The notes under the pieces were generated by a model, which saw only the letters and a list, made by a program, of their open reading frames with translations, was not told where the DNA came from and made no database searches. Of a stretch of DNA of 64,000 bases, positions 3-9,436 are shown in pieces (the first letter of the stretch is position 1; every line of letters begins with the position of its first letter). The stretch is from positions 62,001 to 126,000 of the forward strand of contig CAADGV010000030.1 in assembly GCA_900696645.1 (NCBI GenBank), read 5' to 3'. A program made the translations under genes and the position numbers. This DNA is from an uncultured Chlorobiota bacterium (GTDB taxonomy: Bacteria > Bacteroidota > Ignavibacteria > UBA10030 > UBA6906).

Positions 3-2102
3 TTTCCCAAGAAGTCATCAGACTGCCTGTCATGTCACACGGATGTCCATAAGAGTGAGATGGGAAACAACTGCTTGCGATGTCATACGACGCAATCATG
101 GAAGATTGCCGACATGGTGCAGAGACATCAATCAACCCGATTCCCGCTTCTCGGCAAGCACTCGACGTTACCTTGCCAAACATGCCACACCAATGCTGCC
201 CGGAAACAGTTTGCAGGAACACCGACCGATTGCTTTGGCTGTCATCAGGAGGATTTTACGACGGCTCGATCTCCGAATCATGTTACTTCGGGATTCTCCA
301 CGGATTGCATGCAGTGCCACGACGTCACAGCGTTCAGGTGGGGAGCGGGATTCCAGCACGAACTGACGCGATTTCCTCTCACAGGGGCGCATGTCGCGGC
401 ATCGTGCTTTGCCTGTCACAAGAATCAAGTCTTCAAATCAACACCAACAGTATGTGTATCCTGCCATCAGACCGAGTATACATCGACGGCGAATCCGAAC
501 CATGCAGCGGCCCGCTTTGCGACTGAATGCCAGACGTGCCATACCACATCACGATGGCCGGGAGTCGCGTACAATCACGATCAAACGCGATTCCCGCTGG
601 TCGGTGCTCATCGCAATCAGCAGTGCAGGGATTGCCATGCTGACAACGTATTTTGGGGAAAGCCAACGGATTGTCTCTCATGCCACCGCACGCAGTTCAA
701 TTCCGCACAAAACCCGAACCATGTTGCAGGCAGCTTCCCGACGGATTGTCAGCTGTGTCATACGTCGAACGCGTGGAGTCCCGCGCAGTTTGACCATAAC
801 GCGACACAATTTCCGTTAACAGGGCGGCATGGCAGCACGCAATGCCAGGCGTGTCACATCAACAACAACTACCAGCTTACATACACGAATTGTTACGAGT
901 GCCATCAAGCGAACTACAATCTGCCGGCAAATCCGCGGCATGTGACACCGAGTTTCGCCCTTGACTGCACGCCGTGTCATTCAACGTCGGCGTGGTCGCC
1001 GTCATCGTTTACTCATAGTGCGACGAGTTTTCCGCTTACAGGGCGTCACGTGAGTACGTTGTGCAACCAGTGCCACGTGAATAATGTGTATCAGAATTTG
1101 CCCGGAACATGCTATGATTGCCATTCAAACAATTATCTTGCGACGACAGATCCGAACCACGTGCAGCGGAATTTCAGCCATGATTGTACGCAGTGCCATT
1201 CAACCAATGGCTGGGATGGCGCGTCGTTTGACCACAATACCACGAACTTTCCTTTGACGGGCAGGCACCTTTCTACACAATGCGCGCAATGTCACATCAA
1301 CGGCAACTATCAGCTTGTGTACACAAACTGCTATCCGTGCCACACAACACAGTACGCTCAACCACAGAACCCGAACCACGTTCTTGGAAACTTCAATCAT
1401 GACTGCGTGCCGTGCCACACGACTACGGCGTGGATGCCATCAACATTCAGTCATTCGACTACACCGTTCCCGCTGGTTGGGGCCCATCAATCTGTGTCGT
1501 GCAATCAATGTCACGTCAACAACCAATATCAGGGGCTTCCGAACACATGCTGGGATTGCCATGCCACGACGTTCAACAACACAACAAATCCGAATCATCA
1601 GCAGGGGCAATTCAGTCACGATTGCTTCCAATGCCATACGCAGTCTGCATGGCAGCCCGCATCATTCAATCATTCAACAACTAATTTTCCGCTGACTGGC
1701 CGGCATCTGACGGCACAATGCCAGCAGTGCCATATAAACGGTAATTATCAGCTTGTGTATACGAATTGCTATCCTTGCCATGCAACGCAATACGCTATTC
1801 CGACAAACCCGAATCACGTCACGCTCCAATTCGGCCACGATTGTACGCCGTGCCATACACAGTCGGCGTGGCTTCCGTCAACCTACAACCACGATCAGCA
1901 ATACTTCAGGATTTACTCCGGGAAGCATCGAAACAAGTGGACGAGTTGCTCGCAATGCCACCCGTCGATCGGGCAATATCAGAACTTCACGTGCATCAGT
2001 TGCCACGAGCACAGACAGTCGGAAATGAATAATAAACATCAAGGTGTTCCCGGCTATCAATACAATAGCCCGGCATGTTACAGTTGCCATAGGAATGTGT
2101 GA
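3..2102 (+). CDS. Multiheme c-type cytochrome, 5'-truncated by the window edge (at least 29 CxxCH)
   Basis: The reading frame is open from base 3, and a CLSCH motif lies at 24-38, upstream of the first in-frame ATG at 60, so the true start is off the left edge. From the ATG onward there are 28 more CxxCH motifs. The visible protein is nine tandem repeats of about 70 residues with three haem motifs each, plus a final CYSCH. Each repeat also carries conserved non-motif histidines in F-x-H, FPLTGRH and NPNH contexts, which are plausible distal ligands giving bis-His haems. The ninth repeat is degenerate (FRIYSGKH). No other domain is visible. Inference: a periplasmic or extracellular electron-wire cytochrome. 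The stop overlaps the start of the outer-membrane barrel gene, so the two are co-transcribed. Confidence 0.93.
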   Translation, partial: FPKKSSDCLSCHTDVHKSEMGNNCLRCHTTQSWKIADMVQRHQSTRFPLLGKHSTLPCQTCHTNAARKQFAGTPTDCFGCHQEDFTTARSPNHVTSGFSTDCMQCHDVTAFRWGAGFQHELTRFPLTGAHVAASCFACHKNQVFKSTPTVCVSCHQTEYTSTANPNHAAARFATECQTCHTTSRWPGVAYNHDQTRFPLVGAHRNQQCRDCHADNVFWGKPTDCLSCHRTQFNSAQNPNHVAGSFPTDCQLCHTSNAWSPAQFDHNATQFPLTGRHGSTQCQACHINNNYQLTYTNCYECHQANYNLPANPRHVTPSFALDCTPCHSTSAWSPSSFTHSATSFPLTGRHVSTLCNQCHVNNVYQNLPGTCYDCHSNNYLATTDPNHVQRNFSHDCTQCHSTNGWDGASFDHNTTNFPLTGRHLSTQCAQCHINGNYQLVYTNCYPCHTTQYAQPQNPNHVLGNFNHDCVPCHTTTAWMPSTFSHSTTPFPLVGAHQSVSCNQCHVNNQYQGLPNTCWDCHATTFNNTTNPNHQQGQFSHDCFQCHTQSAWQPASFNHSTTNFPLTGRHLTAQCQQCHINGNYQLVYTNCYPCHATQYAIPTNPNHVTLQFGHDCTPCHTQSAWLPSTYNHDQQYFRIYSGKHRNKWTSCSQCHPSIGQYQNFTCISCHEHRQSEMNNKHQGVPGYQYNSPACYSCHRNV

Positions 2103-3694
2103 TGAGGAGTAGATATGTGTGGGTGTGTATCCTGCTTGCACTGAGCGCAAGAAGTGAGGTAAAGCAGATACGCGGCAGGGTAACGTACGTGGCAAGCGGA
2201 ACAGTGTACACATCGCTGGGAAGAGAGTCGGGTGTTCAGGATTCTACTCTTCTTTTTGTTGTCTCCGGCAGAGACACAACAACATTGAAAGTGTTTGCCG
2301 TGAGTTCAAAATCCTCTGCTTGCCGGATTCTGCACGGCACGCGTTCTGCCGGCATTGGTGATGAGGTTTTGGGAACCATCGAAATTGCAGAAACAGTCCG
2401 AACGGCTGCCGATACCTCACGAACGTTAAGTCCAACTACACGGGCTCCGCTGCCGAATCCTCGTGCACTGCCTCCGGTTCCTGTCCAAGAAGGCATTCTG
2501 AGCGTCAGGGGAAGGCTCAGCGCCCAGTATTTCACTTCTCTCTACGACAATACGCTGTTCAATATTTCACAGCCCGGAGTTGTCGTAAACTTGCGCGGCA
2601 CAATACGCGACGTGCCACTGAAGTTCGATGTCTACACAAATGTCAGAACGCTTTCAGTCGGCAATAAGAGTCCGTTCTCCGGAGGCGCAATCAACCAAAC
2701 CCGGATTTACGGACTTTCAGTGACGTATGATGATGGCGAGAATGTTCTTTCGCTCGGAAGGATCATTCCTGTTTTTTCGCCCTCCATCGGATACATTGAT
2801 GGCGCGCTGGCATCAAAAACATTCGGCGGTTTTACGGTGGGAGGAACAATCGGATATCAACCCGCGTTCAACCTGCGCAGTCTCTCCACCGACTTCAGGA
2901 AATTTGCGCTCTTCGCACAATATAGAACGCCCGATCGCATTTCGTTGTCCGTTTCAACGGCGTATGCGCGTACATATTTTCGGTCGGTGCTTGACCGTGA
3001 GGTAACAAGTGTACTGCTCAATGCTTCGCTTGCGTCGAACCTTTTTCTCTATGCCAATACGGAAATTGACTTGAGAAGAAAGTCCGGCAGCGATTTCATC
3101 CTCTCGCCCAAACTGACCGGGGCGTACGTCAATCTCAACTATCGTATCATCCGGCCGTTGAGTGTAAGTATCGGCGCCGATGCTTCCCGGCCGTATTACA
3201 GCTTCGAATCCGTGCGGCTTATTCCGGATTCGCTTCTGAGGAACGAGCTACGCTCAGGAGTAAGTGTCAGTATGAATATCCTGTTGCCAGGCGGCATATC
3301 GCTGTTCAATACGTACACACCCCGTACTTCCGAAAACGAATCGTTCGGCAGCGACTTCTCGAACTACTCGGCAATCAACTTCTCTGATATCCTATCAAGC
3401 GGGATTAGCATCCGTGGCAATATGAACGTGAATGCGAATCAGTATACACGTGGAACCGGATATGGCGTGTCGATCCAGAAAACCTTCGCTCAACTGCTCG
3501 ATATCAATCTTCGCCTGCATCGTAACGGCTACACGGTGAAGCAAACCGATGTGAGAAGCTCAAGCTCAACCCTTGGTGCTGACGTGATGGTGTTTCTAAC
3601 GAGAGAACTCAGTTTTGTTGCATCGTACGACAGGCTGAGCGGGTATGGTACGGTGTCGAATTCCGTGTTTGCCGAACTCAGTATGAGGTTTTAG
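2102..3694 (+). CDS. Outer-membrane beta-barrel protein linked to the multiheme cytochrome
   Basis: About 530 residues with an N-terminal signal peptide ending near ALSARS. A small beta-rich periplasmic domain follows (about residues 22-95). A Thr/Pro linker then leads to a long region of alternating aromatic/polar beta strands ending in ELSMRF, with the C-terminal Phe typical of outer-membrane barrels. I prefer the ATG at 2102, which overlaps the cytochrome TGA as TGATG and has AGGA at 2092-2095; a GTG at 2099 is also possible. I see no haem motif. Its place between a giant cytochrome and a ferredoxin-flavoprotein suggests the porin part of a porin-cytochrome conduit, analogous to MtrB-type systems. 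No direct MtrB similarity is claimed. Confidence 0.7.
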   Translation: MRSRYVWVCILLALSARSEVKQIRGRVTYVASGTVYTSLGRESGVQDSTLLFVVSGRDTTTLKVFAVSSKSSACRILHGTRSAGIGDEVLGTIEIAETVRTAADTSRTLSPTTRAPLPNPRALPPVPVQEGILSVRGRLSAQYFTSLYDNTLFNISQPGVVVNLRGTIRDVPLKFDVYTNVRTLSVGNKSPFSGGAINQTRIYGLSVTYDDGENVLSLGRIIPVFSPSIGYIDGALASKTFGGFTVGGTIGYQPAFNLRSLSTDFRKFALFAQYRTPDRISLSVSTAYARTYFRSVLDREVTSVLLNASLASNLFLYANTEIDLRRKSGSDFILSPKLTGAYVNLNYRIIRPLSVSIGADASRPYYSFESVRLIPDSLLRNELRSGVSVSMNILLPGGISLFNTYTPRTSENESFGSDFSNYSAINFSDILSSGISIRGNMNVNANQYTRGTGYGVSIQKTFAQLLDINLRLHRNGYTVKQTDVRSSSSTLGADVMVFLTRELSFVASYDRLSGYGTVSNSVFAELSMRF

Positions 3695-3704
3695 GAGGGG
3701 AGAA

Positions 3705-5024
3705 ATGGAGACGGCCTATACATTACTGGTGTTTGTTGTATTGTTGGGGGCGATAGCTGTTCCTTATTGGAGAAAAGTTGCGCGGCACAAGCGGGAAGCG
3801 GTTGAGAAGTTTGAGAAGAATCAGCGGATGGGCATACTGCCTCCCGTCACGCTTCATCCCCATTTCGATCTCACGAACTGCATTGGCTGTGCAAATTGCG
3901 TGCGTGCATGCCCCGAACATGTACTGGGCATCGTGCAAGGTAAACCGGGAATTATCAACGGAACAAAATGCGTGGGTCATGGTTTGTGTGCGGATGTTTG
4001 TCCGGTTGGCGCTATTACGTTGGGTTTCGGAACGCCGCGCCAGGGCATGGAACTTCCGCAGTATGATGACAACTTCGAGACGAATGTTCGCGGCCTGTAT
4101 ATCATCGGCGAGTTGAGCGGCATGGGTTTGATCAAGAACGCAATTGCGCACGGAAAGAAGGCTGTGCAGCATGTTGCGTCAACCCGCCGGTCAAAACATC
4201 TGGATGGGTTGGATATCGTTATTGTTGGTGCGGGTCCGGCGGGTCTCTCAGCCGCCCTCACGGCGCAATCGTTGAACTTGCGGTATGTGTTGCTTGAACA
4301 GGATGAGATCGGCGGAGCATTGCTGCACTACCCGCGTCAAAAATTGGTCTTGACCAGTCCTGTCGACCTGCCGTTGTATGGAAAACTGAAGGTCTCGGAA
4401 ATCAAAAAAGAAGAACTGTTGAGCATCTGGAAGGAGATCGTCGGGAGATTTCAGTTGAATGTCGTCACCGGACAAAAGGTGGAGGTAATTCACAACATCA
4501 ACGATCACTTTGTCGTGAAAACGGCGACGGCCGAATTCAAGGGGGCAAACGTCATGCTTGCGCTGGGAAGACGCGGAAGTCCTCGCAAGTTGGGCGTGAC
4601 AGGAGAGAATCTTTCCAAAGTCATGTACAGATTGATTGAGGCAGAATCATACAAGCACAAACATATCCTCGTCGTCGGTGGCGGTGATAGTGCCGTCGAA
4701 GCTGCTATCGGGCTTGCAAGCCAGACGGGGAACGTTGTGACCATCAGTTATCGCAAAGAAGATTTCGTTCGTCTGAAAGAAAAAAACGAGCACAAAGTGA
4801 AACAGTACCTCAATTCCGGCAAGCTCCACACAATCTTCAACTCGCAAGTCCTTGACATACGAGAAGACACTGTTCTTGTGCAGGAGTCCGGCAAGATCAT
4901 GCACAATCTGCAGAACGATTTCGTGTTCGTTTTTGCGGGGGGGGAATTGCCGACTGAACTATTGAAGAAATGCGGCATCAAGCTCCGACCTGCAGAGATT
5001 GAGGCGCAGGCTGTCGCGGCATAG
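3705..5024 (+). CDS. Membrane-anchored 2x[4Fe-4S] ferredoxin fused to an FAD/NAD(P)H oxidoreductase domain
   Basis: Residues 5-22 form one transmembrane segment. Residues 59-105 hold two CxxCxxCxxxCP-like clusters (CIGCANCVRACP; CVGHGLCADVCP). Residues 124-155 resemble the FAD-binding segment that normally closes thioredoxin-reductase/YpdA-like enzymes (GLYIIGE). The FAD-binding GAGPAG follows at about 175-180, and the NAD(P)-binding GGGDSA at about 328. I see no redox-active CxxC of thioredoxin reductase. A strong AGGAGGGG (3693-3700) sits just before the ATG, 10 bp after the barrel gene. Inference: it moves electrons between NAD(P)H or ferredoxin and the cytochrome conduit at the inner membrane. 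The order of the FAD segments looks circularly permuted. Confidence 0.85.
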   Translation: METAYTLLVFVVLLGAIAVPYWRKVARHKREAVEKFEKNQRMGILPPVTLHPHFDLTNCIGCANCVRACPEHVLGIVQGKPGIINGTKCVGHGLCADVCPVGAITLGFGTPRQGMELPQYDDNFETNVRGLYIIGELSGMGLIKNAIAHGKKAVQHVASTRRSKHLDGLDIVIVGAGPAGLSAALTAQSLNLRYVLLEQDEIGGALLHYPRQKLVLTSPVDLPLYGKLKVSEIKKEELLSIWKEIVGRFQLNVVTGQKVEVIHNINDHFVVKTATAEFKGANVMLALGRRGSPRKLGVTGENLSKVMYRLIEAESYKHKHILVVGGGDSAVEAAIGLASQTGNVVTISYRKEDFVRLKEKNEHKVKQYLNSGKLHTIFNSQVLDIREDTVLVQESGKIMHNLQNDFVFVFAGGELPTELLKKCGIKLRPAEIEAQAVAA

Positions 5025-6028: not shown

Positions 6029-9000
6029 ATGGCTGAACTGGACGAAGCACAAGAGCGGCGCAAGAGAAGCGGCGAATACCTGAAAATGGCTGACAAGCTG
6101 TTCAAGGTTGCCGACTATGAGGGCGCGCAACGACTTGTCCAACAGGCCATGGATACCGATCCGAATAATCCATACGCTCTGGCGTATCGTGAGCGCGTCC
6201 ACTATGCCCTTCAAGAACAGCGTGCGAAGCGAACAGCATCTTCATCATCATCACCTCTAACTCCACCTCCATCGAACCAGCCCGAAACGCGTCCTGCTCG
6301 TGTTGCTGAAATCCGCGCGCCGGCTACGGAAAATCTTTCAATGAAAGAAGAACGCGGGCTTGGCAAAAGTGCCGATGATCGGAAAAAAAGCGGACCTGTT
6401 GACGACGAATCCCAACGTCGCGCCACCGAATCGCGTCAGAAAATCGAAGCAGAACTTGCCCGGCAAAAGTCGTTGGTTGAAGCTGCATTAAAGATCGAGG
6501 AAGTTCGGAAGAAGAGTAATGAGGAGAACCTCCGTCAGCGTGCCGACCTTGAAGCGAAGCTCAAGAGCATTGAGGCGGAAAGTCGTCGCATTGCACAAGA
6601 GGCCGTCCGGAAAGCGGAGGAAACAGAGCGGCATCGTTTGGCTGAAGAGCAGAAACGCAAATGGGAAGAAGAGCAACGCCTCAAAGCTGAGGAGGCTCGC
6701 CGGAAGGCCGAGGAGGAACTTGCCCGGCAACGTTCCGAGTTGGAAGCAATTGTCAAAGCAGGCGAGGAAGAAAAAAGAAAAATTGCCGAGGAGGCGCTCC
6801 GCACTGCTGAGGAGGCGAAACGTCAGGCCGAACAGGAAATTGCGCGGCAACGTGCCGAACTGGAACGACGTCTGAAAGAAGAGGAAGAAGAGCGGCGGCG
6901 CATTGCCGAAGAGGCGCGCAAATCCGCCGAGGCGGAGATTCAGCGTGTTGTGGAGGAAACAAAACGTCTTGCAGAGCAGGAAATCGCCCGTCAGCGTGCC
7001 GAACTGGAAGCCCTCATTAAAGCCGGTGAAAAGGAGAAGCAGAGTATTGCGGAAAAAGCAATGCGCGAGGCTGAGGACCTGAAACGGCTTGCAGAAGAGG
7101 AAGTCCGCAAGATCACCGAAGTATCACGGCGCAGAGCCGAGGAAGAAGAACTGCTCCGGCGCGCAGAAGAAGTACGGCGAAAGGAACAGGAAGAGCAATG
7201 GAAGCTTGCCGATGAAGCGCGGCAACGAGCTGAAGAGGAGCGACGAAGGGTTGAAGAGGAACTTGCACGGCAACGCGAGATCATTGATGCGGCCCTGAAA
7301 GGGGAAGAACGTCGCAGAAAACTCGAAGAAGCTTCGGCACGGCAAACAGCCGAGAAGGAATCCAAGCGGAAACATGAGGAAGAGCTCCGGCGTCGTGAGT
7401 TGGAAGATGCCCACAAACGGGCCGAAGAGGAGATCCGCCGGAAGCTTGAGGAGGCAACCCACAAGCTTGAGGAAGAACGCCGGCGCTACGAGGAAGAGAA
7501 GCGTGAACGCATCGAGGCGGAAGAAGTTCGTAAACGCCAGGAAGAGGAACAGCGCAGGCAACAGGAACTTCGTCTGAAGGAAGAAGAAGAGAATGTCCGC
7601 CGCCGCATCGCCGAACAGGCAAGTCAACAACTCGAAGAGGAACGCAAGCGGATTGAAGCAGAGGCTCAGGTGCGGTTGGAGGCAGAACGGAAACGCATCG
7701 AGAAGGAACTGCAAGCCAGAATTGAAGAGCAGCAACGCAAACTCGAAGAGGAGCACCGGAGGGAGAGTGAATTAATCAGCCTTCGGAAACAGGCAGAGGA
7801 GGAAGAACGACGGCGCATTGAGGAGGAATTCAAACGTCAGATTGAAGAGGAACGACGCCGGCTTGCCGAGGAACATCAGCAATTGCTCGAGGCTGAGCGC
7901 AAACGCATCGAGCGGGAAATGCGGCTGAAGTCCGCCGAAGAAGACCGCAAACGCGAAGAAGAGGAACGGCGTGCCAACGAAGAAGCACGACATGTGGCGG
8001 AAATCGAGAAACAACGGCAACTGGAAGAAGAAGCACGGAGACGGATTCAGGAGGAGGCACAGGAAGAACTTGAAGCAGAGCGCCTGCGCCTTGAGCGTGC
8101 CGCTGCCGCGAAACTGGAGGCGGAGCGCCAGCGCATCGAAGATGAACTGCAAGCCCGGCTCGAAGAGGAACGCCGCAAGCTTGAGCTTGCCGAACAGAAA
8201 GAGCAGGAAGAGCGCGAACTAAAACAGCGGGCTGATGATGAAGAACGATTGCGCCTTGAGAAAGAATACCGGCAACAAATCGAAGACGAACAACGGCGCG
8301 TAGAGGCCGAACAAGAACAACTTCTTCAAGCCGAACGCCGGCGCATCGAGCACGAAGCCCGGCAAAAGGCCGAGAATGAAGCGCGCCGCCTTGAGGAGGA
8401 AGAGCAGCGCCTTCTTGCCGAGAAGCGTCGCAAGGATGAAGAATCCGAACGGTTGAGGCAGGCCGAGATCGAGCGGCTCAAGAATGAACAGGAGATTCTG
8501 ACGAAGAACCACGAAGAGGCAGTCCGTCAGGCAATCGCGGAAGGGCGACGATTAGCCCAACAAAAGAAGCTCCGTTCCTATTTCGAGTCGGCCAGACAGT
8601 TTCTTGCCGAGGGTCGGTTCGAAGATGCGATGAAGGAAGTCACGAAGATTTATCTCGTCAATCCTAACGATACCGAAGCCAAGGAACTGGAAGCGGAGAT
8701 CTACAACGGACGTCAACATCAGGTCAAACGGAAAGAGGGGGCCCGCCGCTGGCGGGAAGAACATCTTCACAAAGTCGAATCTCTTCAAAAAGAAATCGCC
8801 GAACTTGCAGTCAAAGAGCGCGAAGAAGAGGAGAAACGTGCAATTCGCAAAAGCAAGATCGATGTGATCCTCAAGAAGATTGAAGATTTCTACCGGCATC
8901 GACAGTTCGACAAAGCCCGCGCCGAAATCGAAACCGTGTACGCTATCGATCCTTCAAACACGCGTGCCCAGGATTATGAGATGGATATCCTGAATGACAT

Positions 9001-9436
9001 GAACCTCAAAGAGGAGGCGCGGCGCGTATTCGAGCAGCGTACGAACCGCGGTACGGCATGGAAGCGGGAAGAAGAAGCAAGAGAACGGACTTTGAGTGAA
9101 CATCGCTCGACTCTGCGCAAGGAGTCGGTCGGATTGTATAGGAGTTTTCTCAAACATCTCTGGAGCGAGGGCAACCCGGCCGGCGAAGAAGCATCATTGT
9201 TGGCTGCAATCCGTTCTTCTCTTGCCATCAGCGAAAACGATCATACTGTCATGGAACGTTCCATCCGGGTCGAGGCGTATGCCGACACAATGCGCCGAAT
9301 GCTCGACGCGAAGCAACTCGGCCGCGATCATGTGGAGGCAACCGCGCATCTGCGTGAGCAAATGGGCGTTACGTTAGACCAGCATATTGCCATTATGGAC
9401 CACCTGACTGACGATCGGGATGCCGTGCATCCTTGA
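6029..9436 (+). CDS. Giant Glu/Arg-rich coiled-coil protein with TPR-like ends
   Basis: 1135 residues with no signal peptide or membrane segment. Residues about 15-60 form a TPR-like helical pair (GAQRLVQQAMDTDPNNPYAL). About 125-845 is almost unbroken heptad sequence rich in Glu, Arg and Lys with recurring EEERRRIEEE-type blocks, predicting a very long coiled coil. Two further TPR-like units follow (GRFEDAMKEVTKIYLVNPND; RQFDKARAEIETVYAIDPSN). The last 110 residues carry two short L-R-x(2)-L/M-x-I/V-S/T-x(3)-H-x(2)-M elements. Tandem duplication probably built the rod. Inference: a cytoplasmic scaffold or filament former; no partner is visible nearby. Its 3' end overlaps the opposite-strand phosphotransferase gene by 44 bp. 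The start lacks a clear Shine-Dalgarno. Confidence 0.85.
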   Translation: MAELDEAQERRKRSGEYLKMADKLFKVADYEGAQRLVQQAMDTDPNNPYALAYRERVHYALQEQRAKRTASSSSSPLTPPPSNQPETRPARVAEIRAPATENLSMKEERGLGKSADDRKKSGPVDDESQRRATESRQKIEAELARQKSLVEAALKIEEVRKKSNEENLRQRADLEAKLKSIEAESRRIAQEAVRKAEETERHRLAEEQKRKWEEEQRLKAEEARRKAEEELARQRSELEAIVKAGEEEKRKIAEEALRTAEEAKRQAEQEIARQRAELERRLKEEEEERRRIAEEARKSAEAEIQRVVEETKRLAEQEIARQRAELEALIKAGEKEKQSIAEKAMREAEDLKRLAEEEVRKITEVSRRRAEEEELLRRAEEVRRKEQEEQWKLADEARQRAEEERRRVEEELARQREIIDAALKGEERRRKLEEASARQTAEKESKRKHEEELRRRELEDAHKRAEEEIRRKLEEATHKLEEERRRYEEEKRERIEAEEVRKRQEEEQRRQQELRLKEEEENVRRRIAEQASQQLEEERKRIEAEAQVRLEAERKRIEKELQARIEEQQRKLEEEHRRESELISLRKQAEEEERRRIEEEFKRQIEEERRRLAEEHQQLLEAERKRIEREMRLKSAEEDRKREEEERRANEEARHVAEIEKQRQLEEEARRRIQEEAQEELEAERLRLERAAAAKLEAERQRIEDELQARLEEERRKLELAEQKEQEERELKQRADDEERLRLEKEYRQQIEDEQRRVEAEQEQLLQAERRRIEHEARQKAENEARRLEEEEQRLLAEKRRKDEESERLRQAEIERLKNEQEILTKNHEEAVRQAIAEGRRLAQQKKLRSYFESARQFLAEGRFEDAMKEVTKIYLVNPNDTEAKELEAEIYNGRQHQVKRKEGARRWREEHLHKVESLQKEIAELAVKEREEEEKRAIRKSKIDVILKKIEDFYRHRQFDKARAEIETVYAIDPSNTRAQDYEMDILNDMNLKEEARRVFEQRTNRGTAWKREEEARERTLSEHRSTLRKESVGLYRSFLKHLWSEGNPAGEEASLLAAIRSSLAISENDHTVMERSIRVEAYADTMRRMLDAKQLGRDHVEATAHLREQMGVTLDQHIAIMDHLTDDRDAVHP

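What the first reader, a model, noticed from the sequence alone, without database searches (positions are those of the whole stretch)
3..5024. Porin-like barrel, at least 29-haem cytochrome and ferredoxin-flavoprotein: a candidate extracellular electron-transfer conduit
Seen: a cytochrome with nine tandem three-haem repeats, each with its own non-motif histidines that could act as distal ligands, then an outer-membrane barrel and a membrane-anchored iron-sulfur flavoprotein, with a TGATG overlap and a 10-bp gap. Known: barrel plus multiheme cytochromes form conduits in Shewanella and Geobacter. Inference: this is an independent version that draws electrons from NAD(P)H or ferredoxin directly. 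The repeat architecture may let cytochrome length change by unit.
Basis: partly seen in the sequence, partly recalled or inferred. Interest (0 to 1): 0.7.

Follow-up and report, generated by a model that had tools for sequence, protein, structure and literature searches.

The report
Five-gene wire from cell to outside
The window cuts through a five-gene cluster, kept together across many Bacteroidota and Ignavibacteriota, that looks like a complete electrical conduit from a cell's internal fuel carriers to its outer surface, ending in a cytochrome whose length changes by whole three-haem blocks between close relatives.

Summary
The whole genome shows two more genes upstream: a five-helix inner-membrane protein with the ligand pattern of two b haems, and a 20-haem cytochrome. 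The window's cytochrome is 811 aa with 31 haem motifs: a 7-haem head, eight 3-haem units (seven of exactly 73 aa), and a 3-haem cap. The barrel is predicted as 22-stranded with an empty lumen. The flavoprotein is membrane-anchored, with a ferredoxin domain and a TrxR-like FAD/NAD(P)H domain lacking the TrxR and YpdA cysteines. All five genes lie together in 36 of 41 long-enough relatives, in two gene orders. Haem number in the variable cytochrome is 1 mod 3 in 54 of 56 proteins (13 to 49), and close relatives differ by whole units. The closest described system is PCC3 (He et al. 2017): porin, two giant cytochromes and an inner-membrane protein with the same HX13H and SGXXG motifs. What differs is the dedicated flavoprotein, the phylum and the strict haem rule. 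I read it as a PCC3-like conduit that takes electrons from NAD(P)H or ferredoxin outward. Electron source, direction and the surface location of the cytochrome are inferred, not shown.

The parts
3..2102 (+). MHC2: variable-length multihaem cytochrome, C-terminal 699 aa of an open frame of 811 aa (31 CxxCH); likely start codon at contig C30:61703, 297 bases outside the window
   Evidence: 8 three-haem units plus head and cap
138..368 (+). three-haem unit 1 (77 aa)
369..1901 (+). three-haem units 2-8, each exactly 73 aa (219 bp), haem spacing 16/25/32, one or more non-motif His per haem
1902..2099 (+). C-terminal three-haem cap (65 aa, spacing 35/15/28), conserved at the end of most relatives
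2102..3694 (+). outer-membrane beta-barrel with signal peptide; ATG overlaps the MHC2 stop (TGATG); no Pfam family
2159..2383 (+). small N-terminal beta domain of the barrel protein (residues 21-95 counted from the GTG at 2099), presumably periplasmic, followed by a disordered linker
   Evidence: AlphaFold2 model
2498..3691 (+). 22-stranded barrel (residues 134-531 from the GTG); nearest solved barrels are TonB-dependent transporters, whose lumen holds a plug that is absent here
3705..5024 (+). membrane-anchored 4Fe-4S/FAD/NAD(P) flavoprotein (439 aa)
3705..3761 (+). N-terminal transmembrane anchor (aa 1-19), followed by basic residues (positive-inside, so redox domains predicted cytoplasmic)
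3855..4028 (+). 4Fe-4S dicluster domain; cluster 1 CxxCxxCxxxCP, cluster 2 CxxHxxCxxxCP with invariant His92 in place of the second Cys
4206..4994 (+). TrxR/YpdA-like FAD and NAD(P)H domain without the TrxR CxxC or the YpdA active Cys

Best explanation
A PCC3-like trans-envelope electron conduit with its own NAD(P)H/ferredoxin entry point. Proposed path: NAD(P)H (or ferredoxin) -> FAD -> two Fe-S clusters of the membrane-anchored flavoprotein, on the cytoplasmic face -> two stacked b haems of the five-helix inner-membrane protein -> fixed-length 20-haem periplasmic cytochrome -> head of the variable cytochrome seated in or at the 22-strand outer-membrane barrel -> a wire of 3-haem units ending at an extracellular acceptor (mineral, electrode or partner cell). 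Shown: gene content, linkage, motifs, haem counts, the unit rule and the predicted barrel. Inferred: assembly into one complex, the electron source, outward direction, and which cytochrome is outside. Outward flow is preferred because NAD(P)H is a low-potential donor and an inside-negative membrane potential favours electrons leaving; feeding Fe(II) electrons inward to NAD(P)+ through the same path would be steeply uphill. A likely benefit is disposal of excess reductant without quinones (inference; compare Ndh2-type EET, from my own knowledge).
For: Five genes together in 36 of 41 relatives with enough flanking DNA, in two orders (cytb-MHC1-MHC2-barrel-flavo and cytb-flavo-MHC1-MHC2-barrel), so retained together despite rearrangement. 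Correlated divergence of four of the proteins over 50 loci (Mantel r 0.89-0.92); this also fits simple joint inheritance. Inner-membrane protein: two HX13H motifs, SGXXG, and invariant H92, H106, H259, H273 at matching depths of TM3 and TM5. Predicted 22-strand barrel with no plug. MHC1 holds 20 haems in 68 loci and 23 in 10, while MHC2 varies from 13 to 49, as expected if one spans a fixed gap and the other does not. At least one non-motif His per haem. Homologues of the membrane protein sit beside a different NAD/FAD/Fe-S reductase and a 7-haem cytochrome in Methylophaga, Salinimonas and Sphingobium plasmids. The PCC3 literature gives the same parts list (PMC5566968).
Against: No experiment on any member. 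Neither cytochrome shows a lipobox or a type IX secretion tail in the window species (by inspection), so surface export of MHC2 is unproven. The structural models contain no haems and no complex was modelled. The membrane-protein model is weak (pLDDT 77, pTM 0.57) and found no PDB match. PCC3 authors propose a quinone link for the corresponding protein, and a quinone site is not excluded here. The genome has two haem-copper oxidases and an ACIII-like gene run, and the aerobe Emticicia carries the cluster, so anaerobic respiration is not the only setting.
Confidence: 0.6

Rival explanations
1. Same conduit, but the inner-membrane protein exchanges electrons with menaquinone as proposed for PCC3, and the flavoprotein is an accessory (for example a quinone reductase or a repair/regulatory reductase).
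For: PCC3 clusters are described with a like membrane protein and no flavoprotein, with a quinone model (PMC5566968). The two HX13H motifs also resemble quinone-active cytochromes b.
Against: The flavoprotein is present in 39 of 41 relatives and moves with the cluster. Distant relatives of the membrane protein have an unrelated NAD/FAD reductase as neighbour. The long loop between TM4 and TM5, a possible docking face, is predicted cytoplasmic.
Confidence: 0.2
2. The conduit runs inward: it takes electrons from outside (Fe(II), Fe(0), a cathode or a partner) and delivers them to the cell.
For: PCC3 is discussed mainly in iron oxidisers (PMC5566968, PMC12442390). The genome has oxidases that could be the sink.
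Against: Entry at an NAD(P)+-coupled flavoprotein would be uphill for Fe(II) electrons and opposed by the membrane potential (inference). Many carriers are MAGs from fen, groundwater and sediment, settings where outward transfer is as likely.
Confidence: 0.12
3. An envelope-confined electron store or periplasmic reductase system with no extracellular partner; the barrel is an ordinary porin.
For: Neither cytochrome shows a surface-export signal; large haem numbers could act as a capacitor (idea cited in PMC7399161).
Against: Persistent linkage of the barrel (37 of 41) and its correlated divergence with the cytochrome MHC1. No periplasmic terminal reductase was seen in the cluster.
Confidence: 0.08

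Closest known systems
PCC3 porin-cytochrome clusters (He et al. 2017, PMC5566968; Gallionellaceae models in PMC10734462)
   Same: Porin, two giant multihaem cytochromes (median 21 and 34 haems; periplasmic 21/24/27 in Gallionellaceae) and a ~300-aa five-helix inner-membrane protein with two HX13H motifs and SGXXG; haem-rich repeats with large number variation.
   Different: Here in Bacteroidota, Ignavibacteriota and allies rather than Proteobacteria; a 4Fe-4S/FAD flavoprotein is part of the cluster; 22-strand barrel rather than reported counts up to 42; haem number follows 7+3n; direct homology of the proteins could not be tested here.
MtrCAB / MtoAB / PioAB
   Same: Barrel plus multihaem cytochromes across the outer membrane.
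   Different: No MtrB_PioB domain in this genome; cytochromes 20 and 31 haems instead of 10; the separate 10-haem form in one family is the nearest size match to MtrA.
Geobacter-type OmbB-OmaB-OmcB PCC, reported in Ignavibacterium and Melioribacter (PMC4245776, PMC7399161)
   Same: Porin-cytochrome cluster in the same phylum.
   Different: I. album's reported cluster has a 14-haem periplasmic cytochrome; the cluster here has 20 and 31 haems, a b-type membrane protein and a flavoprotein. Sequence comparison with OmbB not done.
YpdA/Bdr bacillithiol disulfide reductase and thioredoxin reductase
   Same: FAD/NAD(P)H fold (best PDB sequence match 7a7b, E 1.9e-46).
   Different: Scores far below the curated cut-offs; lacks the catalytic cysteines; carries a membrane anchor and ferredoxin domain.
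NADPH oxidase / ferric reductase (FRD) and Ndh2-type EET
   Same: Cytoplasmic flavin, two b haems across one membrane, outward electron flow (analogy).
   Different: Separate Fe-S flavoprotein of another fold; continues through a periplasm and outer membrane; no Pfam FRD match.

Membership tests
PCC3 | Outer-membrane porin gene in the cluster | tested here: met
   22-strand barrel model and linkage
PCC3 | Two multihaem cytochromes with very large haem numbers, repeat-rich | tested here: met
   20 and 31 CxxCH here; 20/23 and 13-49 across relatives
PCC3 | About 300-aa inner-membrane protein, five TM helices, WX3HX13H on TM3 and TM5, SGXXG on TM4 | tested here: met
   286 aa; both WX3HX13H motifs and SGXXG in the window species' own protein; HX13H at least twice and SGXXG in all 23 aligned, WX3HX13H twice in about half of the 23. 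TM2 fell below my hydropathy cut-off but is helical in the model
PCC3 | Sequence homology to Sideroxydans/Leptothrix PCC3 proteins | not testable with these tools
   No named PCC3 sequence could be fetched; distant gamma- and alphaproteobacterial homologues of the membrane protein were found, in porin-less modules
PCC3 | One cytochrome extracellular, one periplasmic | not testable with these tools
   Both have Sec-type leaders by inspection; location needs experiment
MtrCAB/MtoAB | MtrB_PioB barrel (PF11854) | tested here: not met
   No PF11854 match in the genome and no Pfam match of the barrel
OmbB-OmaB-OmcB PCC | OmbB-type porin | not tested
   No OmbB model was run
YpdA bacillithiol disulfide reductase | Active-site Cys in the FAD motif and family score | tested here: not met
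   GAGPAG without Cys; 174.8 bits against cut-off 339.9
Thioredoxin reductase | CxxC in the NADPH domain | tested here: not met
   GGGDSA instead; no CxxC there in the alignment
Ferric reductase/NOX (FRD, PF01794) | FRD domain | tested here: not met
   No Pfam match for the membrane protein; motif pattern is analogous only

The most novel reading that the evidence does not exclude
A quinone-independent, NAD(P)H- or ferredoxin-driven extracellular electron conduit that is a common envelope machine of Bacteroidota and Ignavibacteriota, built from a fixed-length periplasmic wire and a surface wire whose reach evolution adjusts by whole three-haem cassettes (7+3n haems).
Probability: 0.4. Interest if true: 0.8.

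Novelty: new variant of a known kind. Interest (0 to 1): 0.6.

Why it matters
Bacteroidota and Ignavibacteriota are common in sediments, peat and aquifers, yet their routes for extracellular electron transfer are poorly described. The cluster's membrane protein was found in 40 of 395 sampled genomes of the phylum, and the cluster in at least two cultured strains (Maribellus sediminis, Emticicia oligotrophica), so it can be tested at the bench. A natural series of homologous wires with 13 to 49 haems in steps of three, including pairs of close relatives that differ by one to five units, lets one ask directly how conductance and reach depend on length. The flavoprotein raises the question of whether electrons can leave a Gram-negative cell from NAD(P)H without passing through quinones.

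Tried and rejected
Thioredoxin/bacillithiol reduction as the flavoprotein's job: catalytic cysteines absent. Defence-system link: no PADLOC match. Fold match for the membrane protein: model too weak, no PDB hit at E<=0.001. Sequence relatives of the 10-haem cytochrome and of the membrane protein in the PDB: none convincing. MtrB chains did not appear among the listed barrel fold matches; this is not evidence of absence. Weak RelE, BMT5 and DnaJ hits on the cytochromes look like artefacts of cysteine/histidine-rich sequence. Reaching proteobacterial genomes through the plasmid locus was not possible. The seven-gene anode-associated Bacteroidetes cluster in PMC8258643 has six cytochromes, so it does not match this one as described.

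Full report
WHAT IS THERE. The window is contig C30:62001-126000 of a 4.2-Mb Ignavibacteriota-type genome. The finding's left edge is the window edge, not a gene start. Reading upstream gives five genes in one run, with contacts typical of an operon: (1) a 286-aa membrane protein, L009:11196-12056; (2) a 549-aa cytochrome with 20 CxxCH, immediately adjacent; (3) the finding's cytochrome, an open frame of 811 aa with 31 CxxCH, its likely ATG overlapping the previous stop; (4) the barrel, TGATG overlap; (5) the flavoprotein after 10 bp. The gene before the run is on the other strand.

THE VARIABLE CYTOCHROME (MHC2). Seven units are exactly 73 aa, with 40-74% protein identity between them. The same plan recurs across relatives. 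Counting CX2-4CH motifs, 54 of 56 complete homologues have a haem number equal to 1 mod 3, from 13 to 49; with strict CxxCH it is 44 of 56. Most strict exceptions carry a CX3CH or CX4CH motif at the expected place. I set aside one locus whose 20-haem MHC1 had been sorted among them, and sequences with internal stops. The nominal p-values ignore shared ancestry. The window's sister species has 37 haems: its units 7 and 8 are extra and 78% identical in DNA to its units 5 and 6, while the other units pair one-to-one at 79-89%. Pairs whose flavoproteins are over 75% identical differ as 31/37, 22/19, 40/37, 34/49 and 16/13; one pair, 31/30, breaks the rule through a lost motif. In one family (f6) the long protein lacks the head pattern, and a separate 10-haem protein lies just before the barrel. 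This suggests that about 10 haems suffice at the barrel and the rest is extension (inference).

THE CONSTANT CYTOCHROME (MHC1). It has 20 haems in 68 loci and 23 in 10, plus 23 in Emticicia; the step is again three. Constancy fits a span across the periplasm (inference; PMC10734462 makes the same argument for PCC3).

THE MEMBRANE PROTEIN. No Pfam family. Invariant H92/H106 and H259/H273 form two HX13H pairs, with SGXXG between them. Hydropathy finds four clear helices; the fifth (residues 50-75) is helical in the AlphaFold2 model and falls below my hydropathy cut-off. Charge distribution puts the TM4-TM5 loop of about 110 residues in the cytoplasm (my reading). These are the published features of the PCC3/PCC4 inner-membrane proteins (PMC5566968).

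THE FLAVOPROTEIN. N-terminal anchor followed by basic residues, a 4Fe-4S dicluster domain whose second cluster has an invariant His in place of a Cys, and a TrxR/YpdA-like FAD/NAD(P) domain without catalytic cysteines. It is best read as an NAD(P)H/ferredoxin electron-transfer flavoprotein. In proteobacterial plasmids (Methylophaga, Salinimonas, Sphingobium) a distant homologue of the membrane protein (hhalign probability 98.6 and 96.9 for the two compared) lies between an FAD/NAD/2Fe-2S reductase of another family and a 7-haem cytochrome. The recurrence of 'reductase, dihaem-b-type protein, multihaem c' with unrelated reductases is the best indirect support for a direct NAD(P)H link.

THE BARREL. 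AlphaFold2 with 57 aligned sequences: pLDDT 87.6, a small N-terminal domain and 22 strands by my count. The best structural matches are outer-membrane barrels, led by TonB-dependent transporters (Z up to 19.7, residues 133-531). That fold has room for a plug, and none is encoded here.

LINKAGE AND SPREAD. Of 41 named loci with at least 8.5 kb beyond the membrane-protein gene, 39 have the flavoprotein, 39 two cytochromes, 37 the barrel and 36 all. Gene order differs between clades. Pairwise distances of four of the proteins correlate at 0.89-0.92, which shows joint inheritance, not interaction. The membrane protein occurs in 40 of 395 genomes sampled from the phylum, and 434 relatives were confirmed in the named collection, of which the best 80 were read. 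Cultured carriers include Maribellus sediminis and Emticicia oligotrophica DSM 17448, where the cluster is on a plasmid beside a ccsA gene.

NOVELTY. The general kind, a porin-cytochrome conduit with giant repeat-built cytochromes, is published as PCC3, and haem-number change in multiples has been remarked on (PMC7399161). I found no paper describing this cluster in Bacteroidota/Ignavibacteriota, its flavoprotein, or the 7+3n rule, but the library holds open-licence papers only. Hence 'new variant of a known kind'.

LIMITS. No member has been tested experimentally. Location of MHC2, electron source and direction are inferences. Models carry no haems, and no complex was modelled.

Noticed in passing
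L009:158-3444 (contig C30:48158-51444, upstream of the window): A protein with a hydrazine-synthase-alpha middle domain, PD40 repeats and two CxxCH, next to a DUF3570 protein: possibly another cytochrome-barrel pair.
   Followed up: no
L180 (own genome C9:46100-61900): A second island with many multihaem cytochromes (13, 19, 4, 6, 11, 12, 5, 8 CxxCH) and several non-haem genes that look like membrane and barrel proteins: perhaps an ordinary quinol-linked route in the same genome.
   Followed up: partly
L181 (own genome C33:14000-26000): Gene run that looks like alternative complex III with a haem-copper oxidase; the genome has two COX1 genes, so oxygen respiration is likely.
   Followed up: partly
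L179:10049-13403, L182:2195-5681, L183:2264-5621: Three-gene module in proteobacterial plasmids: FAD/NAD/2Fe-2S reductase, HX13H membrane protein, 7-haem cytochrome, often beside heavy-metal genes and without a porin.
   Followed up: partly
window 3978-3980 (flavoprotein His92) and the alignment: The second 4Fe-4S motif has an invariant His instead of the second Cys (CxxHxxCxxxCP), which may shift its potential or make a different cluster.
   Followed up: no
L122:10870-11487 and L073:6506-7099: In some clades a roughly 200-aa TPR protein weakly like CcmH/CycH sits in the cluster; a possible apocytochrome-handling factor.
   Followed up: no
L161:18841-19575 and L178:20701-21471: A GW-dipeptide-domain protein follows the barrel in Maribellus and Emticicia.
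   Followed up: no
L089:3071-4522: The flavoprotein of one peat MAG turns into a thioredoxin-reductase-like C-terminus, probably a chimeric contig.
   Followed up: no
window 6029-9436: An 1135-aa Glu/Arg-rich coiled-coil-like protein downstream of the cluster; not examined.
   Followed up: no
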